Made by a program: the position numbers and the translations under genes
In this document: positions 54,040 through 58,951 of the stretch, piece by piece
Position numbering within the stretch: position 1 is the stretch's first letter
How the letters are laid out: every line of letters begins with the position of its first letter
NCBI GenBank assembly: GCA_027486795.1
Contig: JAIXOI010000028.1
Location: forward strand, 62,001 to 126,000
Origin: Sphingobacteriales bacterium
Lineage (GTDB): Bacteria; Bacteroidota; Bacteroidia; Chitinophagales; CAIOSU01
Direction of reading: 5' to 3'
Length of the DNA stretch: 64,000 nucleotides
Notes under the pieces: generated by a model
What the model was told of the DNA's origin: nothing
Databases searched by the model: none
Seen by the model: only the letters and a program-made list of their open reading frames with translations

Positions 54040-54555
54040 ATGGCATTGAAAAGAAAAGCCAAACTTGATCCATTGAACGTTGCATACGGTGTAGGTGCGG
54101 CAGTAGTTATCACTGGGGCAATGTTCAAGTTTCTAAACTTCCCTTTTGCAAGTGAAATGCTATTTGTGGGATTGGCAGTTGAGGCGCTAGTATTCTTTAT
54201 TTCGGCCTTTGAGTTGAAGAAAGACGATGTGGACTACCAATGGGATAGGATTTTCCCACAGCTTACCAAAGAAGGGGAGAATAAAATAGAAAGAATTGAG
54301 GATTGGATTGAGCAAGCTGATTTAGACCCGATGGTTATTCAGCGCCTTACCAAAAGCATTGAACGTTTAGAACAGAACGTGAACAGGATGGCTGATATGT
54401 CGGATGTGGCACAACTTAACGACCAAGTAGAAAAGATGCGTCAATCGTCAGAGATGTTTGAGCAAGAAATTTCTAAGCTCAACACCAGCATTTCGCAGAT
54501 GAACTCATATTATATGCGAATGCTTGAAGTAATGGGGAATAAATCCCAAGCTTAA
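54040..54555 (+). CDS. gldL: Gliding motility/T9SS inner-membrane motor protein GldL-like
   Basis: VAYGVGAAVVITGAMFKFLNFPFASEMLFVGLAVEALVFFISAFE: two TM helices matching the GldL core, then a coiled-coil-like tail. Confidence 0.85.
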   Translation: MALKRKAKLDPLNVAYGVGAAVVITGAMFKFLNFPFASEMLFVGLAVEALVFFISAFELKKDDVDYQWDRIFPQLTKEGENKIERIEDWIEQADLDPMVIQRLTKSIERLEQNVNRMADMSDVAQLNDQVEKMRQSSEMFEQEISKLNTSISQMNSYYMRMLEVMGNKSQA

Positions 54556-54599
54556 TCATTTCTACCCCGATTGGGTTCAAATAAACCGGAGCAGGAAAC

Positions 54600-56255: not shown

Positions 56256-58951
56256 TGCAATTAACAACGAATAACTACATTCCAAAACCAACTAAAAAAA
56301 CTACAATGCTGATGCTGACTAAGAAAAAAGGCAAGTCAACACTGGGGTTACTTTTGCTGGCATCATTTTTTTGTGCTTTGTGCCCCAATGTGATTTTTGC
56401 CCAAGGTGAGGTAGTTGCAGCCGACCAGATTGTATTGGAAGGGTTTATCAGCGCTGATAAACAATTAGAAAGTGGAAAGACTTATCTAATCCAACACAAC
56501 GTAAAAGTAAATGCCGGAGCTACATTGACCATTCCGGCTAATGTTACTTTGCTTTTTGGACCCAACACAACTATTGTGGTTGAAGGTGGCTTAAATGTTG
56601 CAGGTGCGCCTAATAGCTTTGTGGTTTTCAAAAGCCAAGAGAAGTATAGCCAAGGCACGGGTATTGTAGTTCGTGGAGCCGAAGGTGCAGACATAACTGT
56701 GAAGTATGCCAAGTTTGTACAGCTTACCACGCCGTTTACCTTCGATTCGGATTGGTATAGAAGTAATGTGACTATTACAAACAGTGAGTTTAGGGAAATG
56801 AATACTGGCGAATCGAATATAATGATTACCAGTCCGCTAAGCAGCCTTTATGCTATAGGCGATAAGAAAACAACTTTTACGTTCTCTAACAACAACTTTA
56901 TAAATAACTGGGGCTCCATATTTATTGAAAACTTGCAAGACAATGTTCTGGATTTGAGGTTTAATAACAACTTGGTAACCAACAACGTAGTGTACGGTAT
57001 TGATAAAGGTATACCAAGCAACACACCGGTTTTTGGCCTATATGATGCAGGCGACAAACGTTTCCAAAGCGAATTGCGCGACAACTCCATTTTCGGAAAC
57101 TACCAGATTAACGCTGCTACCGATACCATTATTCGCGAAATAAGCGTGGGTATACAAGGAGCAGGCGAAACCTTTAGCATGCCTAACAACTTCTTTAGGT
57201 CGACACAAGATGATTACATATCTTCTACTTTCGATCACTTCTACCAGAACAATTCATTGCCATTGTTAATGGCGCAGCCAGTTCTTACCAAGCCTTCGGC
57301 CCAAACCCATGCACACATTTATAAAGTGAAACTAGTGGGTAATGAGGTGATGAACTATGCCGAAATACCGGGTGACTTGCCAGCTACCAACGTAACATTC
57401 GAAGTATACTTCAACCGCCCCGTAACCGAGTTTGGCGAAACACAATTGGAATCGGTATTTTATGATACCATTAACAACGGTATCCGAATCGACCCAGTTA
57501 ATGTATTAAACGGTCAATGGTCGCAAGACAATACCGTGTATACGTTTTCAGTAGCCGATGCTTCTTTTATGAAAAACGAGTTGGGCTATGTGATTATTAA
57601 AAACTTTAAGGACAACGAAGGTTTTGAAACACCTGATTTCACTATCGGACAGCGCAAGGCCATTAACAACTACAGTAAGCTATATGCCACTGGCGTTGCT
57701 AGTACATACTTCCCGCCAGCTGAAGTTATCAGCAATCCAGGTGGATTTGATTTGACCGAAGATGAGGTAAATACTTTATCGACTTTGAGCGAATTGGGCG
57801 ATTTGTCATACTTGGGAGCTTACACTTCTTTGGCTAAAACTTGGGAGCTTGGTTTAATGGCAGGTACCATGAATTATAGCGGAGATTTGGCTGCTAAGTT
57901 GTTCGATAAACGTGAATTTAAATGGTCTGTTGGTATATACGGGCAGTACAATATCTCTAAATGGTTCTCTGCTCGCTTGGCGTTTACTCACGGACAGATA
58001 AGTGGTTCAGATTTGGATGAAGCTGAATTTGGTCGTCAACGCAGGGTTGCTAACTTTAGAAACAACATTTATGAAGGTTCATTGACGTTCCATTTCCATT
58101 TGTTGCAGTATGGTATAAGCAAAGGTGAAAGGTTTTCACCTGCCATTTTTGCCGGTATCGGGGTGTTTAACCACAACCCAGAAGCCCGAATTTTTACTGG
58201 CTTGAATGCATCGGGTGCGCCTAGTTATTTGGCTTACGATGGTACCAATTTTATAGCTGCAGCCGAAAATGAGGCCGACAGGTCAGAATATATTTGGGTT
58301 CCTTTGCATAGCATAGGTACTGAAGGTCAAACATCAACTACTCCTGATGTTGACCCAGATAACAAATATAGCCCTCGTAATCCGCCTAAAAACTATAGCT
58401 TGTGGCAGATATCTATTCCATTTGGTTTAACATTTGATTTCATTATCAATAAATCATGGACTGTAGGTATTGAAGCCAGTTTCCGTTTTACCCTCACCGA
58501 TTATTTGGATGATGTAAGCGGCAACTATTGGGATAGGGCAAATTTCGGCCAATCGATTGTTGATGCCAATCCTGAAATTACTGGTAAACTAGGTAATGGT
58601 CTTTTCCGTGACGATATTGTATTGCCAAGCGATTTGCGCGATGTAAACGATGGCACCGGTGGAATTTGGATGTCGCAAGGACAAATTTTGGTTCGTCCTA
58701 CCAACGCGATACCGACGGCAGCTTTCTTATCAAACCCATCATTGGCTAATGCTATATTTCAAAATCCTGATGGAAGTATTGAATACGAAGCTGGTTTGAA
58801 CGATGCCAATACATTCCCAACTGCACGTAAGGGAGACTCTAACCGCGATTGGTTTGCGTTTTTTGGTGTAAAGGCCACTAAAATATTTGGTTATAATAAG
58901 TACCAAAAGAAGCAAGCGAAAGACAATGTGACAACTGCGCCTAAATATTAA
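56255..58951 (+). CDS. Beta-helix-like N-terminal region fused to PorG/DUF6089-like outer-membrane beta-barrel
   Basis: TAATG coupling to gldM; signal peptide; repeated beta-helix-like rungs (VNAGATLTIPANVTLLFGPNTTIVVEGGLNVAGAPN...); C-terminal half WELGLMAGTMNYSGDLAAKLF...RLAFTHGQISGSDLDEAEFGRQRRVANFRNNIYEGSLTFHFHLL resembles DUF6089/PorG. Confidence 0.65.
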   Translation: MQLTTNNYIPKPTKKTTMLMLTKKKGKSTLGLLLLASFFCALCPNVIFAQGEVVAADQIVLEGFISADKQLESGKTYLIQHNVKVNAGATLTIPANVTLLFGPNTTIVVEGGLNVAGAPNSFVVFKSQEKYSQGTGIVVRGAEGADITVKYAKFVQLTTPFTFDSDWYRSNVTITNSEFREMNTGESNIMITSPLSSLYAIGDKKTTFTFSNNNFINNWGSIFIENLQDNVLDLRFNNNLVTNNVVYGIDKGIPSNTPVFGLYDAGDKRFQSELRDNSIFGNYQINAATDTIIREISVGIQGAGETFSMPNNFFRSTQDDYISSTFDHFYQNNSLPLLMAQPVLTKPSAQTHAHIYKVKLVGNEVMNYAEIPGDLPATNVTFEVYFNRPVTEFGETQLESVFYDTINNGIRIDPVNVLNGQWSQDNTVYTFSVADASFMKNELGYVIIKNFKDNEGFETPDFTIGQRKAINNYSKLYATGVASTYFPPAEVISNPGGFDLTEDEVNTLSTLSELGDLSYLGAYTSLAKTWELGLMAGTMNYSGDLAAKLFDKREFKWSVGIYGQYNISKWFSARLAFTHGQISGSDLDEAEFGRQRRVANFRNNIYEGSLTFHFHLLQYGISKGERFSPAIFAGIGVFNHNPEARIFTGLNASGAPSYLAYDGTNFIAAAENEADRSEYIWVPLHSIGTEGQTSTTPDVDPDNKYSPRNPPKNYSLWQISIPFGLTFDFIINKSWTVGIEASFRFTLTDYLDDVSGNYWDRANFGQSIVDANPEITGKLGNGLFRDDIVLPSDLRDVNDGTGGIWMSQGQILVRPTNAIPTAAFLSNPSLANAIFQNPDGSIEYEAGLNDANTFPTARKGDSNRDWFAFFGVKATKIFGYNKYQKKQAKDNVTTAPKY

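What the first reader, a model, noticed from the sequence alone, without database searches (positions are those of the whole stretch)
54040..58951. GldL-GldM motor pair coupled to a beta-helix/PorG-like barrel fusion instead of GldK/GldN
Seen: GldL-like and GldM-like ORFs in tandem. The GldM stop overlaps the next start (TAATG at 56253-56257). The third protein (898 aa) has a signal peptide, beta-helix-like repeats, and a C-terminal region resembling DUF6089/PorG barrels (WELGLMAGTMNYSGDL..., RRVANFRNNIYEGSLTFHF). Upstream is about 750 bp without an obvious gene; downstream a terminator and a convergent gene. Established: canonical T9SS loci are gldK-gldL-gldM-gldN, GldLM is a proton-driven motor, and PorG is an outer-membrane barrel linked to the PorK/PorN ring. 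Inference: this cluster may be a compact or alternative machine in which GldM contacts a single outer-membrane barrel directly, with the beta-helix as a periplasmic or surface element replacing the K/N ring.
Basis: partly seen in the sequence, partly recalled or inferred. Interest (0 to 1): 0.82.

Follow-up and report, generated by a model that had tools for sequence, protein, structure and literature searches.

The report
Second GldLM motor with own barrel
Some Bacteroidota carry, besides their normal Type 9 secretion and gliding machine, a second proton-driven motor (GldL-GldM) whose partner is a single outer-membrane protein, a PorG-like barrel fused to a periplasmic beta-helix, which suggests an undescribed machine that drives an outer-membrane barrel without the usual GldK/GldN ring.

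Summary
Window 54040-58951 encodes a GldL (171 aa), a GldM (551 aa) and an 898-aa outer-membrane protein made of a beta-helix, an Ig-like domain and an 8-strand DUF6089/PorG-type barrel. It does not replace the Type 9 system. The same genome has a complete PorP-GldK-GldL-GldM-GldN locus and a PorG next to uppS and bamA. The trio is an extra, parallel module. Its GldM forms a clade apart from canonical GldM (support 100/100). The genes stay together in all nine fusion-positive genomes (9 of 399 sampled in the order), while flanking genes change. Motor residues are conserved. The fusion lacks the C-tail cysteine that ties PorG to GldK. The AlphaFold2 barrel pattern, and OmpA domains at the C-terminus of some homologs, place the beta-helix in the periplasm. 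A remote second version (gldL, two different gldM, fusion) occurs in another Bacteroidota family and suggests a heterodimeric GldM axle. Best reading: a family of GldLM machines in which GldM acts directly on a PorG-like barrel; direct contact and function are inferred, not shown. I found no description in the open-access literature searched.

The parts
53845..54039 (+). conserved upstream block, probable promoter/5' leader of the trio
   Evidence: conserved among G000, G003, G004 and G001 while the rest of the 689-bp gap is not; no classical Bacteroidota -7 motif found
54040..54555 (+). gldL paralog (171 aa); Glu48 (54181-54183) aligns with F. johnsoniae GldL E49, Glu58 (54211-54213) with E59
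   Evidence: PF22827, TIGR03513; alignments
54600..56255 (+). gldM paralog (551 aa): TM helix with conserved Arg8, helical D1 and beta-rich domains to D4
   Evidence: PF12081/PF21602/PF12080; PDB 7cmg E=2.5e-34; AF2 and Foldseek to PorM/GldM; clade support 100/100
56255..58951 (+). fusion gene (898 aa): signal peptide, periplasmic beta-helix, Ig-like domain, PorG/DUF6089-type barrel
56426..57289 (+). beta-helix (aa 58-345); its second half is the most conserved domain stretch of the protein
   Evidence: AF2; conservation by domain
57302..57664 (+). Ig-like domain (aa 350-470)
   Evidence: AF2
57827..58894 (+). 8-strand outer-membrane barrel (aa 525-880), with the PorG motifs GTEGQ (aa 688) and TDYLDD (aa 748)
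   Evidence: PF19573, AF2, Foldseek OmpA/OmpW, motifs
58983..59014 (.). terminator hairpin between the trio and the convergent gene
   Evidence: inverted repeat AAAGAGCCTGGATT-GTAT-AATCCAGGCTCTTT read in the sequence

Best explanation
The three genes encode a self-contained trans-envelope machine that works beside the canonical Type 9 system. GldL and GldM form a proton-driven inner-membrane motor of the GldLM kind. The periplasmic GldM shaft acts directly, through its D4 tip, on the periplasmic beta-helix/Ig part of one dedicated outer-membrane barrel. That barrel descends from the PorG family but is hard-wired to its motor by the beta-helix instead of being tied to the GldK/GldN track by a disulfide. 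Because the PorG surface motifs are kept, the most likely output is a PorG-like one: pushing or moving an outer-membrane or surface partner, possibly helping export or release of a subset of cargo. Shown: gene content, conservation as a unit, homology, domain folds by prediction, loss of the cysteine tether, coexistence with canonical gldKLMN. Inferred: proton drive from conserved residues, direct GldM contact, and the output (weakest step).
For: Trio conserved as a unit in the nine fusion-positive genomes of three families with changing flanks. Globally 58 fusion proteins and 56 GldM-paralog proteins, with 26 equal longest-contig lengths between the two lists. GldM paralog is one clade, 100/100, on a long branch. 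Motor residues kept: GldL E48/E58, GldM Arg8 in 47 of 47 ungapped rows; E49 is essential in F. johnsoniae (PMC8986121). The mature window fusion has no cysteine, and its homologs have no C-tail Cys apart from TSP3 GCP pairs, while own canonical PorG ends ...ERCPWPSRIL and own GldK keeps ...KGC...; PorG-GldK linkage is a disulfide in F. johnsoniae (PMC12635249). Barrel has short turns between S2-S3, S4-S5 and S6-S7 and long loops elsewhere, so both termini are periplasmic; seven homologs end in a peptidoglycan-binding OmpA domain. The second half of the beta-helix is the best conserved domain stretch; outer loops vary most. A remote version with the same parts, gldL-gldM-gldM-fusion, exists in another family.
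Against: No interaction was modelled: AF2 was run on single chains only, and the GldM model is modest (pLDDT 71). Conservation of the operon does not prove direct contact; GldM of the trio could still reach the GldN ring. The output is inferred from PorG, whose own mechanism is not settled. No phenotype is known and the carriers I could name are metagenome assemblies.
Confidence: 0.6

Rival explanations
1. Auxiliary input to the canonical machine: the second GldLM motor still drives the GldK/GldN(/GldJ) track, and the fusion is an extra PorG-like or docking part of the same Type 9 or gliding apparatus.
For: Fusion-positive genomes that are reasonably complete also carry canonical gldKLMN, so a shared track is available; D3-D4 domains of GldM are retained; the fusion keeps the PorG motifs GTEGQ and TDYLDD.
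Against: The known physical link of PorG to the track, a C-tail cysteine, is absent from the fusion. The GldM paralog is far diverged from canonical GldM. gldK/gldN are never beside the trio in the loci read.
Confidence: 0.26
2. Autotransporter-like or surface-displayed beta-helix adhesin that happens to sit behind a gldLM duplicate.
For: Beta-helix followed by a helical linker and a C-terminal barrel resembles a type V layout; one homolog matches PF03797 weakly; weak Foldseek hits to autotransporters.
Against: Eight strands, not twelve; loop pattern puts the N-terminus in the periplasm; some homologs have C-terminal OmpA domains; the beta-helix is conserved, not variable; constant linkage to gldLM in two remote lineages.
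Confidence: 0.06
3. Ordinary redundant duplication of gldLM and porG in the genome, without a separate machine.
For: This genome also has an orphan gldM and several porG-like genes.
Against: One stable three-gene unit with its own fused protein, kept in distant families with intact motor residues, and a second version with the same parts elsewhere.
Confidence: 0.06

Closest known systems
GldLM / PorLM motor of the Type 9 secretion system (PDB 6ys8, 7sat, 7sau, 7saz, 7sax, 7cmg)
   Same: GldL two-helix domain with the proton-carrying Glu; GldM TM helix with conserved Arg, helical D1, D3-D4
   Different: separate GldM clade; shorter GldL (171 aa against 243 aa in the same genome); no gldK/gldN beside it; paired with an outer-membrane fusion
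PorG (NF052316, DUF6089), outer-membrane barrel disulfide-linked to GldK/PorK
   Same: 8-strand DUF6089-type barrel; GTEGQ and TDYLDD motifs
   Different: about 520 extra N-terminal residues (beta-helix, Ig-like); no C-tail cysteine; below the PorG model cut-off; not beside uppS-bamA
ExbBD-TonB, TolQR-TolA/Pal, MotAB, AglRQS (other 5:2 motors)
   Same: works-like comparison: inner-membrane ion motor acting on an outer-membrane or cell-wall element; some fusions carry an OmpA/Pal-type domain; AglQ/AglS is a precedent for two axle genes (PMC9389320)
   Different: no membership; motor is GldLM-type by sequence and fold
Type V autotransporter
   Same: beta-helix plus C-terminal barrel
   Different: 8 strands, periplasmic beta-helix, motor operon

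Membership tests
GldL/PorL (TIGR03513) | score above curated cut-off | tested here: met
   104.1 against 68.3 bits
GldL/PorL (TIGR03513) | conserved TMH2 glutamate (F. johnsoniae E49) | tested here: met
   E48 in window and in all relatives aligned
GldM/PorM (TIGR03517) | score above curated cut-off | tested here: not met
   178.7 against 180 bits, just below
GldM/PorM (TIGR03517) | domain layout TM, D1, D3, D4 | tested here: met
   Pfam domains above gathering cut-offs; Foldseek best hits PorM/GldM; PF21601 (second domain) not reported
GldM/PorM (TIGR03517) | groups with canonical GldM in a tree | tested here: not met
   separate clade, 100/100
PorG (NF052316) | score above curated cut-off | tested here: not met
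   108.9 against 130 bits
PorG (NF052316) | 8-strand DUF6089 barrel | tested here: met
   PF19573, AF2
PorG (NF052316) | C-tail cysteine for the GldK disulfide | tested here: not met
   absent in window and in homologs except TSP3 pairs; present in own canonical PorG
Canonical T9SS core locus | gldK and gldN next to gldLM | tested here: not met
   absent from the trio loci; present at the separate canonical locus
Type V autotransporter | 12-strand barrel with the linker in the pore | tested here: not met
   8 strands in the AF2 model; position of the linker helix not determined
5:2 ion-driven motor | pentamer around a dimer, ion-driven | not testable with these tools
   inferred from homology only

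The most novel reading that the evidence does not exclude
A family of direct-drive GldLM machines exists in Bacteroidota that bypass the GldK/GldN track and turn or push a dedicated PorG-like barrel through its periplasmic beta-helix. In one lineage the axle is a heterodimer of two different GldM proteins, only one of which keeps the conserved N-terminal Arg. Elsewhere the outer-membrane partner is doubled, as tandem fusion genes (some with a peptidoglycan-binding OmpA domain) or as a single chain with two barrels, hinting at two barrels per GldM dimer.
Probability: 0.45. Interest if true: 0.87.

Novelty: new variant of a known kind. Interest (0 to 1): 0.72.

Why it matters
How GldLM force reaches outer-membrane proteins is an open question; current work puts a GldK/GldN ring or track in between. 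A compact version with one outer-membrane partner would let the force-transfer step be studied with three proteins, and a motor with two different axle genes would allow the two GldM positions in the motor to be told apart. It would also show that the GldLM motor has been re-used for other outer-membrane jobs, as the ExbBD/TolQR kind was.

Tried and rejected
(1) Replacement of GldK/GldN in the genome: rejected, canonical locus present. (2) Known standard neighbour: rejected; the fusion is rare (9 of 399 genomes in the order; only the window's own genome in a phylum-wide sample of 399). (3) Autotransporter: rejected on strand number and topology. (4) Solved relatives of the fusion by sequence: none; Foldseek finds only generic OmpA/OmpW barrels. 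(5) PHROGs: nothing. (6) Papers on DUF6089, GldLM paralogs or a second gldLM set: none found in the open-access library. (7) A single-sequence hhalign of the L114 upstream ORF gave nothing; a profile of its own family identified it. (8) A gliding role from GldL E58 (F. johnsoniae E59 is needed for SprB movement): not used, because PorL of the P. gingivalis structure also has a Glu there.

Full report
Observation. GldL: 54040-54555, PF22827 and TIGR03513. GldM: 54600-56255, PF12081, PF21602 and PF12080, with the TIGR03517 score just under its cut-off. Third ORF: 56255-58951, 898 aa, DUF6089 and a sub-threshold PorG score. PDB relatives by sequence are PorL/GldL and PorM/GldM; the fusion has none. 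The TAATG overlap is real in the sequence, but homologs in G001 and G005 start near Met18-20 with a gap after gldM, so it may not be the working start.

Genome context. The genome (3.9 Mb, 97.6% complete) holds a complete PorP-GldK-GldL-GldM-GldN locus (L008), an orphan GldM (L007) and three stand-alone PorG-like genes. One PorG lies next to uppS and bamA and ends ...ILKERCPWPSRIL. The trio is therefore additional. The canonical locus was also read in G004, G005, G006 and G019; GldN is found in seven of nine fusion-positive genomes. The two without it are G003 (90% complete) and G021 (57% complete), so absence there is not conclusive.

Conservation. The fusion occurs in nine genomes of three families of the order: 9 of 399 sampled in the order and only the window's own genome in a phylum-wide sample of 399. 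In all nine, the GldM paralog lies directly upstream, and the GldL paralog lies upstream of that wherever the contig reaches; flanking genes differ in G005, G006 and G019. Database-wide there are 58 fusion proteins counting the remote P0058 and 56 GldM-paralog proteins, with a sharp drop to the next hit among the scored candidates. Carriers with names are metagenome assemblies, several called Chitinophagales. A tree puts the GldM paralogs on one side of a branch, 100/100.

Motor. GldL keeps Glu48 and Glu58, aligning with F. johnsoniae E49 (essential) and E59 (needed for SprB movement; PMC8986121). The canonical GldL of the same genomes lacks the second Glu; since P. gingivalis PorL has it, I draw no conclusion about gliding. 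GldM Arg8 is kept in all 47 ungapped rows; its role in the motor is from my memory of the GldLM structure papers. The AF2 model of GldM (pLDDT 71) matches PorM/GldM structures.

Outer-membrane partner. AF2 on 59 sequences (pLDDT 82.7, pTM 0.53) gives a beta-helix, an Ig-like domain, a low-confidence linker and eight long strands at 529-542, 556-566, 571-585, 600-615, 627-639, 717-731, 735-746 and 866-878. Turns of 4, 11 and 3 residues alternate with loops of 13, 14, 77 and 118 residues. By the usual rule for outer-membrane barrels the short turns and both termini are periplasmic, so the beta-helix is too. Seven homologs carry TSP3 repeats and a C-terminal OmpA domain (two of them rescanned), which agrees. 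The second half of the beta-helix (mean relative entropy 3.03) is as conserved as the barrel strands (2.89) and far more than the outer loops (1.9-2.2), as expected of a docking surface. The barrel keeps the PorG motifs GTEGQ and TDYLDD. What it lacks is the C-tail cysteine by which PorG is bound to GldK (PMC12635249): no cysteine in the mature window protein and none in the tails of its homologs except TSP3 pairs, while the own GldK keeps its KGC motif.

A second version. A 2.8-kb contig binned in G002 (L114) encodes a remote relative of the fusion; it may be contamination, since no other genome of the order sample has it. In another family of the class (f85; all 6 positives among 396 sampled genomes) the same kind of fusion sits in an operon gldL - gldM-A - gldM-B - fusion, read in five loci. 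Fusion profiles match from the beta-helix into the barrel (hhalign 100%, E=2.9e-50). GldM-B matches the window's GldM family (96.8%) and GldM-A does too (89.9%), and they match each other (98.1%); reversed and unrelated controls score 15-28 against 57-107. GldM-B keeps the N-terminal Arg in 5 of 5 and GldM-A in 0 of 5. These genomes too have canonical GldN. Two gldM genes beside one gldL suggest a heterodimeric axle; this is inference. In G006 and, judged by equal contig lengths, at least five other contigs two fusion genes occur together, and several fusions of the second type of about 1000 aa carry two barrels in one chain. Both facts would fit two barrels per GldM dimer.

Mechanism and verdict. 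The best-supported reading is a GldLM motor that drives its own PorG-derived barrel directly. Shown here: parts, linkage, homology, predicted topology, loss of the known tether, coexistence with the canonical system. Inferred: proton drive, direct GldM contact, and the output. The main rival is an auxiliary motor on the canonical track. The open-access papers searched do not describe this arrangement; subscription literature was not searchable, so novelty is judged on what was available.

Noticed in passing
L007:8482-10110 (G000:C39): Orphan GldM-like gene without a gldL beside it, in a housekeeping neighbourhood; it groups with canonical GldM. Several genomes of the order have more than one GldM.
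   Followed up: partly
L009:3767-4174 and L010:1973-2389: Short secreted proteins (135 and 138 aa) that match only the GldM C-terminal (D4) region.
   Followed up: no
L109:6668-8726 (G000:C28): Two tandem stand-alone DUF6089/PorG-like genes next to an NAD kinase gene, without the C-tail cysteine of canonical PorG.
   Followed up: partly
P0075, P0114 (homologs of window 54600-56255): GldM paralogs with a low-complexity Gly/Gln/Lys-rich insert of about 100 residues in the periplasmic shaft.
   Followed up: no
L114 (G002:C22): Contig with a second-type fusion and GldM-B gene in a genome of the window's genus, probably a binning contaminant from another family.
   Followed up: yes
G000:C51:42567-42806, G004:C143:46462-46767, G001:C21:334247-334648: Weak GldN-like matches with in-frame stop codons; possible decayed second gldN or a divergent relative.
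   Followed up: no
window 47579-51670: 1363-aa protein with a proprotein-convertase P domain and a C-terminal Type 9 sorting domain, a likely cargo of the canonical system.
   Followed up: no
window 51686-53350: GNAT acetyltransferase fused to a carbon-nitrogen hydrolase, conserved upstream of the trio within the genus only.
   Followed up: no
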